Source: a virus
Length of the DNA stretch: 64,000 nt
Direction: 5' to 3' (one strand)
IMG/VR virus record: IMGVR_UViG_3300044716_001642
Location: 62,001 to 126,000 of that record
A model generated the notes under the pieces. The model was given only the letters and a program-made list of their open reading frames with translations, was not told the DNA's origin and made no database searches. Positions within the stretch are counted from its first letter, which is position 1. Every line of letters starts with the position of its first letter. Positions 8,961 to 62,900 of this stretch are shown here, one piece after another. Both the position numbers and the translations under genes were made by a program.

Positions 8961-9170
8961 TTATCTTGGCAGGTATATTGCTTTTATTGCGGCTGGATCT
9001 TCTTTCTGGCAAATTTGATAATCACCATAATACCATTCAGAAACTTGCTCGCGTACAATTGTTTCTACTGCTTCTTGAGGAGTATCGTAATCTCCTTCGT
9101 AGCCATCTACAAGCACAAGCGTTTCCGGATCTAGTTTTTGTAATACTTCAATTAGCTCTTTGACTTTCAT
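8961..9170 (-). CDS. conserved small hypothetical protein (69 aa)
   Basis: It begins MKVKELIEVLQKLDPETLV, a pattern common in small phage and bacterial proteins: an N-terminal helix, then a beta segment LVLVDGYEGDYDTPQEAV. It overlaps the stop of the RNA ligase gene by 23 bases. Molecular role unknown. Confidence 0.68.
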   Translation of the reverse strand: MKVKELIEVLQKLDPETLVLVDGYEGDYDTPQEAVETIVREQVSEWYYGDYQICQKEDPAAIKAIYLPR

Positions 9171-10245
9171 AATTTTGATTTATAAGTTTCGCCCACTGTT
9201 CTTTCGTTATTTCTTTATTATCTAAGACGCAAAATACAAGCGCCGAATTTTCCTTAAAGTTTTTTTTGATCATTAAAGCTTGTTCTTTTCTGGTTTCGAC
9301 CATTCTTATATCATGTACCACCTCTAGAATATGGTCAATGTATTTTCTTGCCTTTTCTCCTGCTTCGCAAATTTTTTCAATTTCACTTTTTAACTGAACC
9401 GCAATCTCATAGTCGAATTCAGTTTCAATTGTTTTATAGAATTCTTGATGCGCTGGCATTTCTTTATCGATATAAAGTTCAATTAAATTCTTAGTAGAGT
9501 TTAATTCTGATTTAACAGTGTGAACTAGTCGATACCAATCTGATTTCAGTTTTATTCTATTTTGCCCGTTGTTGTAGGAAATTACTACCCCCTCTTCGCC
9601 TTTCCATTTTTGAATATGTTCGTATATTTTTGATAAGTCTCTTGCGTCGTTAAAATTATATGTCTTAGGCGTTGGGACAGTCCCAATTTTTCTCCAGATT
9701 TCAGTCAACTCCGGAGATGGAACTACAGTCAAATCATCTTTGTTTATTGCGCCAAGAAGATAAAATTCAACTTCTTTTGGTCTAATAACTATAACATTGT
9801 TTGGCGTAACAATTTCAAACAAAATAGTGAGATGAGAATTTTGTTTTAAAAACTCTACTACATTTGGATATTTTTCAGGAAGTATTTCAAAATCTTTTGC
9901 ATTGGCTAGGGTTGTATAAGAAACGGTTCCTCTAGTTCTCATGGAAAATTGACCGTTCACATAGTCACAAATTACCAATGAGCCGTCTTTTTTTTCTTCA
10001 TACTTCCAGTCACTAAAATGTTCCGCATTTGGATAACAGTCTGGCTTTTCGCCATAATTAAAGAACTTTGGCCAGCCTGAAGATAGAACATTTGCCTGAT
10101 TGTCAGTAATGAGGGAACGATAAAATAAATTGCTACTATTCCATTTTGCATCCCTTTCTGGCGTTATCAAATAACAATCCAGACCACAAAATTTATTTGG
10201 AACAATATTAAAATACCCCTCTTCTATAGGAAGATTAACTTTCAT
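9148..10245 (-). CDS. RNA ligase, T4 Rnl1-like
   Basis: A 365-residue nucleotidyltransferase-superfamily ligase. Motif I is EEKKDGS, with Lys85 as the likely AMP-accepting residue. An FEIVTPNN motif near residue 152, EGVVIS (motif IV) and RIKLKSDWY (motif V) follow in order, then a helical C-terminal domain. Order, spacing and length resemble T4 Rnl1, which reseals cleaved tRNA anticodon loops with polynucleotide kinase. A second ligase at 16613-17626 and a kinase-like protein at 20194-20790 fit an RNA-repair role. Confidence 0.82.
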   Translation of the reverse strand: MKVNLPIEEGYFNIVPNKFCGLDCYLITPERDAKWNSSNLFYRSLITDNQANVLSSGWPKFFNYGEKPDCYPNAEHFSDWKYEEKKDGSLVICDYVNGQFSMRTRGTVSYTTLANAKDFEILPEKYPNVVEFLKQNSHLTILFEIVTPNNVIVIRPKEVEFYLLGAINKDDLTVVPSPELTEIWRKIGTVPTPKTYNFNDARDLSKIYEHIQKWKGEEGVVISYNNGQNRIKLKSDWYRLVHTVKSELNSTKNLIELYIDKEMPAHQEFYKTIETEFDYEIAVQLKSEIEKICEAGEKARKYIDHILEVVHDIRMVETRKEQALMIKKNFKENSALVFCVLDNKEITKEQWAKLINQNYESQRAN

Positions 10246-10418: not shown

Positions 10419-12470
10419 TTAGTTCGGAGTAAATGTCGCAGTAAGCGTTGACGAAGAAGTGTTGCTGTATCCATCTTCGCCATTCCATCCTGGGCACCAC
10501 GTTCCAAATCCTACGAGGGACCGTCCGTCTACAACGATGGTCACACTATTTGGATATCCACATGGAGAGCTTTCCAAATCCGATGAGGCTTCGTGACCGC
10601 CGCCAGATAATGCTATGTAATAAAACCCGTCCTGTTCGCCAAGTTGATAGGAGATACTGCCAGAAATATAATAATCAACGGTATATGGATCGCTGCCTTC
10701 ATAAGTATACGTCGCATAAGCCGGACCAGACGCACTGACTGAGCCAGAACATCCAGAGGTTGATCCAGAGCCATTAAACGATCCGGAACCCTCAGAAGTC
10801 TTGCCATCAGCCGCCTCGCTCTCTGCGAAAGTCCCGCTCAACGTCCATGTTCCGCCGTTCTTATAAGCTAGATATTCTGCTTCACTTATCTCGAAAACAT
10901 TTTTCCCAGAAGGTACTCCGTTACAAGATTCAATGCCACATTTATAACATTCATAGCAAGGGTAATCTCCCGTTCCGCTAGACGTCAGCACTATCTCCCC
11001 CTCTGGACATTGGAGACCCGTTTCCACGTCATAAGAAGGATATGAACTTGACCATCCATTTTCAGTATCACACTCACAACATGTCCAGCATGTAATTCCT
11101 AGTGAGCTGCCTTCCACGAACGTAACGTATGGTATATGATCACCCTCTGAGCACGGCAGGTTTTCTGGATAATATTCGGACCCACTAGGACAAGTGCAGT
11201 TTTTAGTCCCATAGACGTCTACATCATAATCGTCCTTGCATCCATTTGAATCCCTCCAGGTTCCAGGCTCGAAATTAGGGTTTCCCTGCGCGTCAAATGC
11301 GCAAATATTCTCTGGAGATAATAAACCTCCACTGCTGTCCACAAGTATCCAATCTGGCACGCCATTTGGATCTTTTGCGCATTTGTAGCAGTCTACACTT
11401 GTTTTATCGTGATTTGGAGGACAAGTTTTTGTGAATTTTGTTGAAATTTCGCAATCACCTTCACAAGACGAACTATCAAAAGGTTCTTCGGGATAACCAA
11501 AATCAGAGCATGTGCAGCACAATGGCAAGCAAGAGGTAGTGACGCTATCTACAAAATCAATATGGCAACTCACGCCATTTAAACCTACGATATTTTTACC
11601 TCCCCAAACGCTTACAACAGTAGTGGCTGACCCGGCTGCTGCGCAACTACCATTATACGTATAATCAATAGTAGTATTTTCTCCAATGGCGCCGCCGAAT
11701 GAACCTGTCAATGTCTGACCATTTGTTGTTACTTTTACAAAGTACGCGTCTCCATCGCAATTTCCGCTGTTTGAACCAATACTTACAGCGATTGCCGCTA
11801 CATGAGTAACTTGACCTGTTGAGCCGCCATATTCATTGTGGCAAGTAGCTGTATCAAGAGAACTGGCTGAAACCGAAACGCTACTTGGGTAGGTTGGGTC
11901 CTTTGGCTCCGATGGACCGGGGCTAGGACCAGGACCAGGACCAGGACCAGGACCCGTTGGTTGCTCTGTACCACCAGGGCCAGGGCCGGGGCCGCCGGGA
12001 CCGGGGAAGGGACCGGGACCTGTTTGTGTTGGTGGTTCTTCTGTTTCTGTTGGTGGTGGTTCTTCTGTTTCTGTTGGTGGTGGTTCTTCTGTGTCCGTTG
12101 GTGATGGCTCTTCTGTTTCTGTTGGTGATGGCTCTTCTGTTTCTGTTGGCGATGGTTCTTCTGTTTCTGTTGAGGTTTCCGTGCCTGACTCGGTTTCAGA
12201 CTCGGTTTCAGATTCGGTTTCAGATTCGGTTTCAGATTCGGTTTCAGTAGGGGTTTCGGTTGGAAGTATAATGGATATGCTATTTGTACATGGTCCTGTG
12301 ATTGATTTTATTACAATTTCTTCTGAATCGTCTGAAACGCCAAGGACGAAACCTGCCAAAAGTTCTGCTTTTGTGAATATAACTTCCGTTTCAGATGGAT
12401 ATATGGTCGCGGACAGCAAGTCTCCAGTGTCCTCGCCAATTCCGCTTTCAGATTTCAAATAAACATCCAT
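10419..12470 (-). CDS. large repeat-containing fibre or adhesin-like structural protein
   Basis: A 683-residue protein. The first ~70 residues form a small beta-rich domain. A Thr/Glu/Ser/Pro-rich stalk follows (repeats of SETE, then TEEPSPTE) and runs into a Gly/Pro-rich hinge (GPGPGPGPSPGPS). The C-terminal ~470 residues are Cys-, Gly- and Ser-rich, with many CxxC pairs and a terminal beta-rich SSSTLTATFTPN. There is no signal peptide. Such a stalk, hinge and head layout suits a virion fibre or surface adhesin. GC content is well above its neighbours, suggesting recent acquisition or selection on codons. Confidence 0.6.
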   Translation of the reverse strand: MDVYLKSESGIGEDTGDLLSATIYPSETEVIFTKAELLAGFVLGVSDDSEEIVIKSITGPCTNSISIILPTETPTETESETESETESETESETESGTETSTETEEPSPTETEEPSPTETEEPSPTDTEEPPPTETEEPPPTETEEPPTQTGPGPFPGPGGPGPGPGGTEQPTGPGPGPGPGPSPGPSEPKDPTYPSSVSVSASSLDTATCHNEYGGSTGQVTHVAAIAVSIGSNSGNCDGDAYFVKVTTNGQTLTGSFGGAIGENTTIDYTYNGSCAAAGSATTVVSVWGGKNIVGLNGVSCHIDFVDSVTTSCLPLCCTCSDFGYPEEPFDSSSCEGDCEISTKFTKTCPPNHDKTSVDCYKCAKDPNGVPDWILVDSSGGLLSPENICAFDAQGNPNFEPGTWRDSNGCKDDYDVDVYGTKNCTCPSGSEYYPENLPCSEGDHIPYVTFVEGSSLGITCWTCCECDTENGWSSSYPSYDVETGLQCPEGEIVLTSSGTGDYPCYECYKCGIESCNGVPSGKNVFEISEAEYLAYKNGGTWTLSGTFAESEAADGKTSEGSGSFNGSGSTSGCSGSVSASGPAYATYTYEGSDPYTVDYYISGSISYQLGEQDGFYYIALSGGGHEASSDLESSPCGYPNSVTIVVDGRSLVGFGTWCPGWNGEDGYSNTSSSTLTATFTPN
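12028..12172. repeat. 24-bp tandem repeats encoding TEEPSPTE-type units
   Basis: About six degenerate copies of a 24-base unit (for example GGTTCTTCTGTTTCTGTTGG plus four bases) lie within the fibre-like gene and encode eight-residue Thr/Glu/Pro units. They are exact enough for slippage to change the copy number. Confidence 0.75.
12187..12246. repeat. five tandem 12-bp repeats encoding SETE units
   Basis: Five consecutive copies of GA(C/T)TCGGTTTCA, read on the plus strand, encode repeated Ser-Glu-Thr-Glu in the minus-strand fibre-like protein. Three copies are identical at the DNA level. Confidence 0.8.
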
Positions 12471-15238: not shown

Positions 15239-15835
15239 TCAAAAGGGGTTTTTGTTGTTTTCTATTATTATTTTTATAAAATTTAAAGTTTCTTCATGGG
15301 ACATGGTATTTTTTGCGTAATTTATATTTCTGCTTACAAATTGAATGTTTTCTTTTGTGTAAGGTCTGGAAGAGTCAATTCTATCAACTGACGCCATATT
15401 GTAAGAAATGTCCGGATTGGGGTTGGAGTTTGTTGGTAATTTTAATTTAATTTTGGTATAAGGGCAAATCCCATTCTGCTTATGCCACACTTCTTTCAGG
15501 TCTTCTATAACAAGGAAAGATTCCTTCCTGTTTGAATTATTATTTATCATTCTAAATAAATATTTGAACTCTCTATTTTCTTTAGAATGAAAATCTCCGC
15601 CTTTATTTAAAATTCCGCTTTCTAAAAGCTTATAGGCTCTAATTTTTGACAATTTATTTAATTCTGGAGTATTTCTTTTACATCCGCATCCCTTTATTCT
15701 ATTCCTTTTCAAATCTTGAAAATTGCATTCTTTTGTTTTTCCGCATTCACATTCGCATTTGACGATTTTATTAGAAATAATTTCTAATATTTTCATGCTA
15801 TTTATCTTTTGCCCAATAAAGCTTTTATTTTTCAT
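15239..15835 (-). CDS. HNH homing endonuclease, free-standing, next to tmRNA gene
   Basis: A 198-residue protein starting at MKNKSFIGQKINSMKILEI. Residues about 23-55 form a zinc-binding N-terminal module (CECECGKTKECNF, GCGCKRN) common in phage HNH endonucleases. The C-terminal half holds the HNH-like part: CPYTKIKL, then VDRIDSSRPYTKENIQFVSR and NYAKN. Such genes are mobile and cut intronless or HEG-free alleles. It lies about 60 bases downstream of the tmRNA 3' end on the same strand. The frame extends to 15871, but those 12 codons overlap the T/A-run spacer. Confidence 0.78.
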   Translation of the reverse strand: MKNKSFIGQKINSMKILEIISNKIVKCECECGKTKECNFQDLKRNRIKGCGCKRNTPELNKLSKIRAYKLLESGILNKGGDFHSKENREFKYLFRMINNNSNRKESFLVIEDLKEVWHKQNGICPYTKIKLKLPTNSNPNPDISYNMASVDRIDSSRPYTKENIQFVSRNINYAKNTMSHEETLNFIKIIIENNKNPF

Positions 15836-15870
15836 AATAAATATTATTGAGTAAACTCCGCACAACTCCA

Positions 15871-15894
15871 TTTTTTTTTTTTTTAAAAAAAAAA
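15871..15894 (-). terminator. T-run/A-run tract behind the tmRNA, possible terminator
   Basis: Transcribed leftward after the tmRNA acceptor end, the sequence is AAAA, ten T, then fourteen A. The T run just after the stable tmRNA acceptor and T-arm helices could act as an intrinsic terminator or processing site. No separate GC-rich hairpin is present. Confidence 0.35.
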
Positions 15895-15897
15895 TTT

Positions 15898-16311
15898 TGG
15901 AGGCGAGAGGGGTCGAACCTCTGTCTTTATAATATCATCTAAAAGATGCTACATGCTTTAATATATTCAATTTATAAGGTATCTTGGCATATTAACCAAC
16001 CTTGATATTTTATAGCTATATCATGCTCTGTATTAGTTTTTCTATGATCTCTAACAGTTCATCAAAACCTCTGCAATTCAAAACGGATTTAGAGGATTAC
16101 CGTTAGGCTTTTAAGCGGCGAGAGCGCAGGACTCTTCTTCAAAACCGGCGAGAAACTCGTCAGCATTGTTGAATATGTATTCAGCTTCGGCTAAAAGATC
16201 AGAAGTATTGTCTTCTGCATTTAGTTTTTTAATCGATTTTTAAAGAGGCCATCGATTAACCTCTACATGCACTTTTAGATTTCGATTACAAATCGAAACC
16301 AGTACGCCCCC
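15898..16311 (-). ncRNA. ssrA: transfer-messenger RNA (tmRNA), one-piece
   Basis: tmRNA rescues stalled ribosomes by acting as alanine tRNA and then as template for a degradation tag. On the minus strand the RNA starts GGGGGCGTACTGGTTTCGA, as in bacterial tmRNA. Its first seven bases pair with CGCCTCC at the 3' end (one G-U). A T arm AGAGG-TTCGACC-CCTCT precedes the acceptor strand. GTGCATG and a pseudoknot-like GAGG...GGCCTC with AATCGAT/ATCGATT match PK1, and AAGCATGTAG near the 3' end matches the E. coli RNA. The tag frame ends in ALAA. CCA is not encoded. Length 414 bases; the order is standard, not permuted. Confidence 0.93.
16111..16218 (-). other. ssrA: tmRNA tag reading frame (35 codons plus TAA)
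   Basis: The resume codon is probably GCA at 16216-16218, placed just after PK1 and preceded by ACTAAAT, as GCA follows ATAGTC in E. coli. The encoded peptide starts AEDNTSDLLAEAEYIF and ends FEEESCALAA before TAA. The ALAA end is the ClpXP/ClpAP degradation signal. At 35 residues it is much longer than the usual tag of roughly ten residues, and it is acidic with a Cys before ALAA. Confidence 0.82.
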
Positions 16312-16430: not shown

Positions 16431-16613
16431 AAATAGAGACTCAAAGTCTTTAATTAATTTATTTGCATCATCCTCTAGCTCACTTAATCCAACGAGCAAC
16501 TCTTTTGCTCTACCTGAGTCCTCATAATAATGATCTAATGTTTTATCTTTCATTTCTTTTATTGAGCTAATTATTTCAGAAACTTCAATGATATGTGAAT
16601 ATGCATCTTTCAT
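16428..16613 (-). CDS. hypothetical helical protein (61 aa)
   Basis: A short acidic helical protein, MKDAYSHIIEVSEIISSIKE onward. Its start overlaps the last base of the RNA ligase gene, so it is the last cistron before the tmRNA region. Function unknown. Confidence 0.55.
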   Translation of the reverse strand: MKDAYSHIIEVSEIISSIKEMKDKTLDHYYEDSGRAKELLVGLSELEDDANKLIKDFESLF

Positions 16614-17626
16614 TAATCTTTGTAATTTCTATTAATTAATTTAAATCCAAGTGGGCGGCGAGAAGAGTATCCCTTTGGGTAGGATGAGGGTCTTACTACG
16701 ATTCCTTCTCCTTCTAGTCCGCTCTGGTATTTTTGTTTATCCGCTAGTTCTTGAAGTTTTTGCAGTGGGTCAACCCAAAGTTTTATGGTGGCATCAAGTC
16801 CCAACTTGCATATTAGGGGGACAACATCGCAATGCAAAGAATTTTCGCAAAAATCTTTCATCTCTTCGTATGTCATGTATTTTTTATTTTCGCTAATTTG
16901 AAATACAAAAATTTTAACATCTTCTAGTTTAAGCTGATTTTTCTGAATTCCATTGCCCACTAATTCGCCCTGTATAACGCCCGTCCAATTTGCTGGAATA
17001 CTAAGTTTCCTTGCGGCTTTCCAGAATGTATTATTTTCTGTTTCTTTTTTAGAAAGATTTCTGGTGCAAACTTGAGAAAGCGCGCCGTCTTCTACAATTA
17101 GCGTTATAGAGCTTCCGTCTAATTTTTGCGTGACCGTGATATGAGAATCGTGATTAAGAACCTTTTCGACTAGATTTGGATCATTCAATCCATTATCCTC
17201 ATCTGTTTTAGAAATAATACTTGTTGGAAAATCTCCAAGCGTTTCACCAGAAAGGTTCGCGGGAATTTCTTTGATGTATTTTGTAACCCCAAGTAATTCG
17301 GTTAAATTTTCACCAACTACAACTGTTTCTGTAAACTGTTCTGGAAATTCGCTAAGAGGTATTACCAAGCCAGAACTATATTCCCCGCGAAGTTTTATAT
17401 TCTTGATGCGAATTGGTTTGTCTGGATTTTTTTGATCAACCAGGAACTCGGACCAATTATAACGAGGGACAATAGTATCGATAGTAATAAAGGCTACCTT
17501 ATCGCCCTCTTTGTGAATCCCTTTTTTAACAATTGTTTGCCAGCCTAAAATTTCAGCAATTTCTAAAGACTCGGCGTTACTATGCTCTCTAATGTTTTTT
17601 ATGATTTCAATTGAAGCTAATTTCAT
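16613..17626 (-). CDS. RNA ligase, DRB0094 (Rnl5)-like
   Basis: A 337-residue ATP-dependent RNA ligase with an N-terminal OB-like domain (about 1-115: MKLASIEIIKNIREH, then GDKVAFITIDTIVP) fused to a nucleotidyltransferase domain. Motif I is TQKLDGSS, with Lys168 as AMP acceptor. VIQGELVGNGIQKN (about 217-230), EGEGIVVRP and GFKLINR supply motifs III-V. The N-terminal extra domain and order match DRB0094-type ligases, which prefer nicked duplexes with 3'-OH RNA. It is therefore distinct from the Rnl1-like ligase at 9148-10245. Confidence 0.85.
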   Translation of the reverse strand: MKLASIEIIKNIREHSNAESLEIAEILGWQTIVKKGIHKEGDKVAFITIDTIVPRYNWSEFLVDQKNPDKPIRIKNIKLRGEYSSGLVIPLSEFPEQFTETVVVGENLTELLGVTKYIKEIPANLSGETLGDFPTSIISKTDEDNGLNDPNLVEKVLNHDSHITVTQKLDGSSITLIVEDGALSQVCTRNLSKKETENNTFWKAARKLSIPANWTGVIQGELVGNGIQKNQLKLEDVKIFVFQISENKKYMTYEEMKDFCENSLHCDVVPLICKLGLDATIKLWVDPLQKLQELADKQKYQSGLEGEGIVVRPSSYPKGYSSRRPLGFKLINRNYKD

Positions 17627-59910: not shown

Positions 59911-62900
59911 TTATACCATTTGTTTTGGAGGTTGCTTGTCACCAGTTGCCTGTTTTGCAATTGTAGTGACTCTCTCAATGAATTCTGCAGAGGATAAAAA
60001 TGCTGTTAAATCAGTTTTAATTTTATCAGCCACATTTGTTACCTCGGTTTTATTTTCACCAGCAGTTGAGTTTATTGAAAGGTTTACTGGAGCGCTTACG
60101 CTAACTGGTGCATTTCCACTGCCGGTTCCAGAAATAGCTCCAGGTTGCGCGCCAGCCGCCTTTTGTTCAAAATCAGTTGCTATTTTTTGCACAACCTGTA
60201 GAATATTAGAAATTAATTGAGCAGTATTTTCTGGTGTATTTTGCTGTGGAGCGGGCTGAGGTTTTCCATTTTTATTATCGTTTTGGGTAGGCGTAGGAGC
60301 AGAAGGTGGTATCGCCGAAGATGCAGGAAGAGTCTGTTTAGTATTGCTATTTAAATTATCAGAGGCAGCATTTGGAGCGGTAGTACTATCATCGGCTAAA
60401 GTATAAGTAGTCTGTAATTTTTTTAAAGCCATGTACTTCTTATTAAATTCGTCCTGCTGATCTTGAGATTCAAATCCAGTTCTAGGATCAAATGTTACAT
60501 TTCCTTCTTTATCAAATTTAGTATATTGATCCATGAAACTATTAATTTCATCATTTTTAAATTTTTGAAGTATCTTTGCTTTATTTGCTGAGTCACTGGC
60601 TTGAGATATTGCCCTAGATGCTGGCGTGGTAGTTGCGGGAGTAGGTTGAGTAGCATCAACAATCGGTTGAATAAGTGTAGCAGCTGGCTGAGTAGCTAAA
60701 GGAATACCAGATTTATTTTTTCCATCAACAGATTTTTCAAATTTTGTTCTCTGCTCTGGAGTAATTTGTTTTGTTATTTTTTGCTTTTCTCCCTCTATTA
60801 CCCCCCTTTCAGATTCTAACCTTTTAATTTCATTCTGAATATTTTCAGAACCCTTCTGAGCTTTTTCTCTTCTAGCTAATTCATTAGCGATTAATTTTTT
60901 TCTATCATATTCATTTCCAACATACTCTCTCTGTCTCTCGTCAAATGAACCAGTTTTTCCATATTTATTTTTATATTCAGATTGAGACACCATATACCCA
61001 CTTGCTTTTAAATTTTTATCTATATACTCATCTCTAGTTGCATTAGATGTCTCTGCATATATTTTATTTAAATCTTGTCCAGTTCCCACCGCCTCATCAA
61101 TCGCCGCAACCGCAGCGGGATTCGAATATTTACCACCAGGGAAAAAATTTTCAGGACTTGAATCCGCCCCCTGTTGTTTTAATTTTTCTATTTTGGCGTC
61201 AATATTGCTGCTTTGTCCAGCAAGAGATTCTTCTGTATCTAGCAGTTGTCCAATCTTTAAATTTTCTTCTTCGTTTTTAAATTTTTCAATTGCCGCCCCT
61301 ATAGAAGAACTAATTGAAGCCCCGATTGATGTAGTAAGACTATCAGATTGACCCAGTATACTTTCATTTATAGTTGATAAAAGATCAGTTTGTTTAGTGC
61401 TTTGAGTCAATTGCAATATTCCAAGACCTTTGTCTGGTGCCATTTTTTCATAAGCTGCCTTCATTTCAGCCAAGTTTTGTTTTTCTTGACCAGAAGCGCC
61501 TTTTTTAGGCGCGAAAGCCGCATTAGCATAACTTTCTAATTGTTTTTCTACAATATTGCCCTTTAAAGTTTCAGGAACGCCAAGCTCTTTGTTTACTCTT
61601 GACTTCGCGTACACTTCAGAAGCCCGAACTTTCCCCCTATCTTTTTCTGGAATAATTGAGTTGAACTGACTTATTGCCCTTTCCGCCTCCACATTCTTTT
61701 TTTGACCGAATGAAGGTTTAAATGTTTTATTTTTTACATCCTCTTCGTACCCGAATTCAGCCATCTTTTCATTCATTATTTTTTGATATTCATCCGCAAG
61801 TGTCTGAGTTGCAGCCGAAACCTTTTTATTATCCAGTGCCATAATTGGAGCACCAAATGCTTCATTAGTAGCCTTTGCATTTTGAATAATTTGATTAGAA
61901 ATGTCAGCATTTGGTTTTTCCCACTTACCAGGACTTGTTTGGAAAAAATATTCGCCATTTTTACTTTTACTAACATTGCTATTATTTTTAGAAGATTGAC
62001 CAGCTATGTTCATTGCCGATTGCGTTTCTCTGATTGTATTTACAACATCAACATTCCCAGTAAGTACATCTTGCGACGAAGCTCCCCCTAAAAAATTTTG
62101 AGCCTCAGTCAATTTAACTAAAGCCTCTTGATAAGCATTACTTTGAGCCAAAAGAGCCAATTGCTTTTCTTGATCTCTATTGCCCTTTTGCAAATTTTGA
62201 TCAAGTTTTGAAAATCCGCTTTTACTAGTATTATCTAGCTTGTCTATTTCTGTTAGAGTAATATTAGATTCCTGAACACCACCCTTCTTAAATTCTGCCG
62301 TGATAGATGAAAGAGCATCTTGGAATTTTGCGATATCTCCACTTTTATAAAAATCAGTTTGAGCAGCTTGCACATTCCCCTGTAATTGTAATTTTTTACT
62401 TTTAAAATCTTGCTCAGCCTGCGCAAGAGCGTCACCAGCAAGGCCAGAATCATTAAGCTGTAATGCCTGAATAACAGAAGAAAATTCTTCAGCAATATTT
62501 TTACCAGACTCAGCTAAAATATTAGTTCTTTCAATTTGTCCCTGATTTTTAATAGCCGTAATCTCGGCTGCCAACTTTTCAGACTTACCAGCCCTTCCAG
62601 CTCCAGCTTGATCAAAAAAACTCGACCTGAAGTCTCCGCGTTTTTGTTCAAATTCTGCTTTAAATTTTAAACTATCAATGAAGCTATCAATGGCGACCTG
62701 AGTTCTATTAGACGCATCCTCTAAACCAGATGATAAGTTTAATAATATTTGATTATTTTTATCAAGTAAATCTTTCCTGGCTCTTTCCGCTGCCGCTGCT
62801 CTTTTTTGATTTTCCTGCAAAGATTTTATTTGCTCGTCCAATCTTCCGCTTTTGATATCATCAATTAATTTAGCCAAAGTTTCTTTAAAATCCTTCGCTT

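What the first reader, a model, noticed from the sequence alone, without database searches (positions are those of the whole stretch)
15898..16311. Phage-encoded one-piece tmRNA
A 414-base RNA gene has tmRNA acceptor pairing, T arm, PK1-like pseudoknot, GTGCATG and AAGCATGTAG conserved segments, and a tag frame ending ALAA. tmRNA in phage genomes is rare. It could keep ribosomes productive after host mRNA decay, or retag host proteins.
Basis: partly seen in the sequence, partly recalled or inferred. Interest (0 to 1): 0.8.

Follow-up and report, generated by a model that had tools for sequence, protein, structure and literature searches.

The report
Phage tmRNA with long conserved tag
This virus of bacteria carries its own complete copy of the bacterial RNA that frees stuck ribosomes, encoding an unusually long, acidic degradation tag shared by a whole uncultivated phage lineage; the gene type was known in phages, but this tag and its conservation are new detail.

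Summary
15898-16311 (minus strand) is a complete one-piece tmRNA gene: ARAGORN calls exactly these bases and Rfam RF00023 scores 116.7 bits (cut-off 47). Across 29 relatives the acceptor, T arm, helix 2, PK1 and a second pseudoknot covary strongly, and the G3:U70 alanine-identity pair is invariant. The record is a 134-kb virus contig with lytic genes, no SmpB and no integrase hit in the family scans. The tag was mis-started by ARAGORN: the conserved resume codon is GCA at 16218, giving a 35-residue acidic tag, AEDNTSDLLAEAEYIFNNADEFLAGFEEESCALAA. It is under protein-level selection (polymorphic sites 7/6/19 by codon position); its core motif recurs on 75 viral contig stretches but in none of 84,980 bacterial/archaeal species genomes. 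The gene lies beside an RNA ligase gene, conserved in relatives. Most likely it is a working ribosome-rescue RNA that borrows host SmpB, alanyl-tRNA synthetase and EF-Tu. Phage tmRNAs are already known (about 2% of phage genomes), so this is a new member of a known kind. Unexpected: relatives carry interchangeable tRNA-like domains with non-canonical T-loops, and some have 45-residue tags, beyond the published 8-35 range.

The parts
15898..16311 (-). tmRNA (ssrA-like) gene, one-piece; G1 at 16311, discriminator A73 at 15898, CCA not encoded
   Evidence: ARAGORN; RF00023 116.7 bits; covariation in 29 relatives
16305..16311 (-). acceptor stem 5' strand GGGGGCG; pairs 7/7 with 15899-15905, including G3:U70
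   Evidence: G3:U70 in 29/29 relatives; compensatory changes at positions 4-6
15899..15905 (-). acceptor stem 3' strand CGCCUCC
15906..15922 (-). T arm AGAGG-UUCGACC-CCUCU (canonical, class A elbow)
   Evidence: 5/5 pairs, 100% of cells paired in relatives, 4 of 5 pairs with double changes
16266..16280 (-). helix 2 5' strand AUCUAAAAGUGCAUG; 3' strand at 15937-15955
16231..16264 (-). pseudoknot PK1
   Evidence: both stems show compensatory changes, 10 of 12 pairs
16111..16218 (-). tag reading frame, resume codon GCA to stop UAA: AEDNTSDLLAEAEYIFNNADEFLAGFEEESCALAA
   Evidence: frame open and GCA conserved in 21/21 unique relatives; third-position bias
16068..16104 (-). pseudoknot PK2 just after the tag
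   Evidence: AACGG/CCGUU covaries at 5/5 pairs; CCUCU/AGAGG is conserved
15956..16067 (-). variable region expected to hold PK3/PK4; length varies most between relatives, not resolved
   Evidence: alignment A3
16613..17626 (-). RNA ligase (PF09414 with PHA02142 OB-fold, phrog_968), same strand, upstream of the tmRNA
   Evidence: used to find 54 related loci
9148..10245 (-). second RNA ligase, T4 Rnl1-like; the assignment to this ORF is inferred from the single PF09511 hit in the scanned set and from similarity to the 361-aa ORF of L008
15239..15871 (-). HNH / endonuclease VII-like homing-type endonuclease starting 27 nt after the tmRNA; no counterpart at this place in the syntenic relative L008

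Best explanation
It is a functional phage-encoded tmRNA. During lytic infection it would be charged with alanine by the host alanyl-tRNA synthetase, bind host SmpB and EF-Tu, enter ribosomes stalled on truncated mRNAs, and switch them to its own reading frame. It would add a tag of one charged Ala plus 35 encoded residues, ending in the ClpX-type signal LAA/ALAA, and release the ribosome at its stop codon. Shown: the RNA fold, the alanine-identity pair, the resume codon and tag frame, selection on the tag protein sequence, conservation beside RNA ligase and tRNA genes in a phage lineage, and absence of phage SmpB from the records searched. Inferred: expression, charging, use of host SmpB, proteolysis of tagged chains, and benefit to the phage.
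For: Exact ARAGORN and RF00023 hits. 49 pairs in 8 helices at 93.5% paired with strong covariation, G3:U70 in 29/29. GCA resume codon in 21/21 unique sequences; tag polymorphic sites 7/6/19 at codon positions 1/2/3 over 24 codons, binomial p = 0.002 for position 3. 41 of 49 unique tags end in LAA and 48 of 49 have no Lys/Arg. 19 of 33 related records carry a tmRNA over cut-off. Every complete tmRNA found near the RNA ligase in the RNA-ligase-derived loci lies downstream on the same strand. Virus context: RNR, Pol III alpha, DnaB, ThyX, rIIA/rIIB, no integrase seen in the scans. Trans-translation is known to matter for a phage: infection by lambda-immP22 is about 10,000-fold lower in E. coli ssrA or smpB mutants (PMC2862035).
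Against: No expression data, host unknown, and SmpB compatibility untested. CCA is not encoded here, so host CCA addition is needed. Some relatives have no tmRNA in their record, including one of 202,880 bp, so it is not essential in every member, although records may be incomplete. The tag's fate (degradation or another use) is not shown.
Confidence: 0.85

Rival explanations
1. Functional tmRNA whose main purpose is the tag, not the rescue: the long acidic tag re-routes nascent or host-derived chains (selective degradation, amino acid recycling, or binding to a phage factor).
For: The tag is about three times the usual length and conserved at protein level, especially DLLAEAEYIFNNA. The core motif is absent from 84,980 cellular species genomes by exact pattern. 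In heterologous complementation, tagging contributed to phage propagation (PMC2862035).
Against: No phage adaptor or protease partner was identified. Most tags still end LAA, the ordinary ClpX signal. Ribosome rescue alone sufficed for lambda-immP22 in a study quoted in PMC2862035. Conservation could partly reflect RNA-level constraint.
Confidence: 0.3
2. Decoy: the phage RNA binds and titrates host SmpB to shut down host trans-translation, as proposed for the TLD-only tmRNA of mycobacteriophage DS6A (PMC4131195, PMC11915505).
For: No phage SmpB, so phage and host tmRNA would share one SmpB pool. A TLD-only form inhibits tmRNA when expressed in E. coli (PMC11915505).
Against: This gene keeps the whole mRNA-like domain, tag frame, stop codon and covarying pseudoknots under selection, which a decoy would not need.
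Confidence: 0.06
3. Captured or decaying host ssrA, left over from integration at ssrA.
For: Many islands and phages integrate at ssrA (PMC11915505; K1 mycobacteriophages in PMC3203893). An HNH gene abuts the tmRNA.
Against: No integrase family was seen in the scans (lists cut at 25 families). Genes around it are phage genes with synteny in relatives. Dozens of unique family members share the unusual tag, with purifying selection and covariation. No close match in sequenced phages and no tag match in genome contigs.
Confidence: 0.03

Closest known systems
Bacterial one-piece tmRNA (ssrA), Rfam RF00023
   Same: Fold, G3:U70, UUCRA T-loop, PK1, GCA resume codon, ALAA tag end
   Different: Encoded by a phage, no linked SmpB, tag of 35 codons against a usual 10
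[quoted passage not shown]
   Same: Complete tmRNA in large phages; C1 mycobacteriophages also carry many tRNAs (e.g. PMC4472892)
   Different: No match to this tag in 50,697 sequenced phages; the tags of those phages were not retrieved here
Two-piece phage tmRNA of Methylophilales phage Melnitz and pelagiphages (PMC9004378)
   Same: tmRNA in an aquatic lytic phage; same proposed roles
   Different: Permuted two-piece gene, riboswitch-controlled; here one-piece, no riboswitch hit in the window
Huge-phage translation modules with tmRNA and SmpB (PMC7162821)
   Same: tmRNA among translation-related genes of large phages
   Different: SmpB absent in all 54 lineage records searched

Membership tests
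tmRNA (RF00023) | Covariance-model score above curated cut-off over the full model | tested here: met
   116.7 vs 47 bits, positions 1-374
tmRNA (RF00023) | tRNA-like acceptor stem and T arm with G3:U70 alanine identity | tested here: met
   7/7 and 5/5 pairs; G3:U70 29/29
tmRNA (RF00023) | PK1 upstream of the tag | tested here: met
   two-stem pseudoknot with compensatory changes
tmRNA (RF00023) | Open tag frame with Ala/Gly resume codon, stop, and hydrophobic C-terminus | tested here: met
   GCA at 16218, UAA at 16111-16113, ends ALAA; protein-level conservation
tmRNA (RF00023) | Alanylation, SmpB binding and tagging activity | not testable with these tools
   needs biochemistry or infection RNA/proteomics
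phage-encoded tmRNA | Located in a phage genome, not a host chromosome or prophage end | tested here: met
   IMG/VR virus record of 134,417 bp with RNR, Pol III alpha, DnaB, RIIA/RIIB; no integrase in the families listed (lists cut at 25 families)
phage tmRNA + SmpB module | Phage smpB gene | tested here: not met
   PF01668: 0 of 54 records including own, ten control bacteria positive
permuted (two-piece) tmRNA | 3' acceptor piece precedes 5' piece in the gene | tested here: not met
   standard order in window

The most novel reading that the evidence does not exclude
The lineage's tmRNA is a specialised phage version. Its 32-45 residue acidic tag is a selected effector peptide rather than a mere degron, and its tRNA-like domain exists in interchangeable elbow classes (canonical UUCRA; 8-nt UAUCGUAN with a shortened D region; GGCAG) swapped as a unit between otherwise 91-97% identical RNAs, perhaps to match different host SmpBs or to escape T-loop-recognising host factors. 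The window itself carries the canonical class.
Probability: 0.25. Interest if true: 0.75.

Novelty: new member of a known kind. Interest (0 to 1): 0.42.

Why it matters
Why phages keep tmRNA genes is unanswered. This lineage offers a natural series: many related tmRNAs with one conserved long tag, no phage SmpB, neighbours with and without the gene, and swapped tRNA-like domains. That lets the rescue role and the tag role be separated experimentally.

Tried and rejected
Prophage or ssrA-integration scar: rejected on context and conservation. Two-piece form: rejected on gene order. ARAGORN's tag start (EAEY) was rejected because the upstream frame to GCA is conserved at protein level. Phage SmpB: none in 54 records. 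Cultured relative: none by tmRNA DNA or tag (only a chance-level hit, E = 4); RNA ligase and Pol III alpha are under 40% identical to those of sequenced phages. Cellular source: the exact tag pattern has no match in 84,980 genomes; the class B 5' pattern used was too strict (it demanded NTTG) to exclude cellular class B elbows. Strict D-loop/T-loop coupling: L147 and L173 have a class B 5' end with a canonical T arm, so it is an association, not a rule. Tag-like C-termini on other phage proteins: none. Sigma-70-like promoter matches near the gene were at chance level. The Bxz1 record is not held, so phage tag lengths were not compared systematically. Relatives drawn by taxonomy are not available for a virus record.

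Full report
OBSERVATION. ARAGORN finds one tmRNA at 15898-16311 on the minus strand and Rfam RF00023 matches 15895-16311 over its full length at 116.7 bits, cut-off 47. The window is 62001-126000 of a 134,417-bp IMG/VR virus record with one tmRNA. Folding alone gives -104 kcal/mol, z = -3.1 against shuffles.

STRUCTURE. Relatives were fetched through the neighbouring RNA ligase (54 loci) and through the tag motif (75 stretches). On 29 aligned tmRNAs with canonical T arms I wrote the structure from the window sequence and counted pairs: 49 pairs, 93.5% of cells paired, 30 pairs with changes on both sides (14.6 in shuffles; 9-13 with slid partners). Acceptor and T arm are paired in 100% of cells; G3:U70, the alanine identity element (established knowledge), is invariant. 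Both stems of PK1 and the first stem of PK2 covary; the second stem of PK2 is conserved. The structure was derived from one of the rows, so percentage paired leans upward, but double changes do not follow from that.

TAG. ARAGORN starts the tag at EAEY. In 21 unique coding sequences from the RNA-ligase-derived (not tag-selected) set, the frame is open back to GCA, preceded by CUAAA(U/C). U at -5 and A at -4 match the positions known to set the frame in E. coli (my knowledge; PMC3968760 states that five upstream nucleotides appear to direct frame selection). The tag here is AEDNTSDLLAEAEYIFNNADEFLAGFEEESCALAA, 35 encoded residues. Over 24 codons, polymorphic sites fall 7/6/19 on codon positions 1/2/3 (binomial p = 0.002 for position 3, ignoring shared ancestry). 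Over 49 unique tags, lengths are 32-35 with two of 45; 41 end in LAA; 8-12 acidic residues and almost no basic ones (this wider set includes tag-selected loci, so conservation of EAEYIFNNA in it is partly by construction). Published tags have 8-35 residues, usually 10 (PMC3968760; PMC11915505), so the window's tag sits at the top of that range and those of L037/L038 exceed it.

CONTEXT. Upstream on the same strand is an RNA ligase (PF09414 plus PHA02142 OB-fold). In the RNA-ligase loci every complete tmRNA found lies downstream on the same strand, 0.04-3.9 kb away, often followed by tRNA genes; in a few whole records it lies further off. A T4 Rnl1-like ligase lies on the other side (9148-10245). 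Right after the tmRNA is an HNH endonuclease (15239-15871); in L008, syntenic on both sides, that gene is missing, which suggests a recent homing-type insertion. The record has eight further tRNAs called with standard anticodons, and RNR, Pol III alpha, DnaB, ThyX, UvdE, dUTPase and rIIA/rIIB. SmpB is absent from this record and from 53 other lineage records, some over 200 kb, while ten control bacteria ring. Of 33 related records, 19 have a tmRNA over cut-off; the 202,880-bp record does not, so the gene seems dispensable in some members.

HOST. Genes lack Shine-Dalgarno motifs (4 of 52 against 2.6 expected). This is compatible with a Bacteroidota host but is only a hint. No sequenced phage shares the tmRNA or tag, and the best RNA-ligase hits are under 40% identical.

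ELBOW CLASSES (beyond the finding). Among relatives three T-loop classes occur, associated with D-region classes: canonical UUCRA with UACUGG-like D (28 unique), 8-nt UAUCGUAN with AAAGGA-like D (15), and GGCAG with UAGAU-like D (4), with one mixed case. Pairs such as L018/L021 and L007/L111 are 95-97% identical in the middle but 38-61% in both tRNA-like ends, so the tRNA-like domain has been swapped as a unit although its strands lie 300 nt apart. Searching viral contigs with the class B T arm alone also brought 13 permuted phage tmRNAs with unrelated tags and a class-B-like D region (Rfam confirms the permuted form for several). A permuted tmRNA of cultured Synechococcus phage BUCT-ZZ01 has the canonical T-loop. 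T-loop/D-loop contacts are needed for SmpB binding (PMC3968760), so matching a host SmpB is a natural explanation; escape from T-loop-recognising factors is another. Neither was tested, and I could not test whether bacteria carry this T-loop. The window's own tmRNA is class A.

MECHANISM AND VERDICT. The best reading is an active phage tmRNA using host SmpB, AlaRS and EF-Tu to free ribosomes on cleaved mRNAs during infection and to mark the chains for proteolysis. Fold, charging signal, frame and selection are shown; activity and benefit are inferred. Phage tmRNAs are known in 402 of 18,146 genomes (PMC9004378) and in huge phages (PMC7162821), so the kind is not new; the lineage, its long selected tag and the elbow swapping are, as far as I could check, not described.

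Noticed in passing
L007, L015, L018, L019, L029, L035-L038, L103, L143 (class B); L025, L079, L091, L093 (class C); L147, L173 (mixed): Three elbow classes of the tmRNA tRNA-like domain (D-region and T-loop types) swapped between otherwise near-identical tmRNAs in one phage lineage.
   Followed up: partly
L172, L174, L179, L180, L184, L195, L203, L205, L206, L207, L208, L212: The non-canonical UAUCGUAN T-loop recurs in circularly permuted phage tmRNAs with unrelated tags.
   Followed up: partly
L037:4018-4488, L038:7587-8060: tmRNAs with 45-residue tags (L037: AENYISDLLAEAEYIFNNASEFLGDVVDSVVDFFNGAEQEYALAA), longer than the published 8-35 range.
   Followed up: partly
window 15239-15871: HNH endonuclease gene directly after the tmRNA, absent at that place in syntenic L008; possible recent homing insertion beside an RNA gene.
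   Followed up: partly
window 15871-15897: Long T run followed by a long A run (minus strand) between the tmRNA 3' end and the HNH start codon; may serve as terminator.
   Followed up: no
L005:2999-3073 (own record 61499-61573): tRNA-like gene with a four-base anticodon (gacg) called by ARAGORN; possible frameshift-suppressor tRNA or false positive.
   Followed up: no
own record outside the window (set L002-L006): One protein matches Tad3, a Thoeris anti-defence inhibitor family, E 1.7e-40.
   Followed up: no
L180:2524-2979: GOLLD giant ornate RNA (175.8 bits) near a tRNA cluster and permuted tmRNA in an unrelated phage contig.
   Followed up: no
window 10419-12470: Low-complexity Thr/Glu/Pro-repeat protein (TETESETESE..., PSPTETEE...), possibly a fibre or adhesin.
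   Followed up: no
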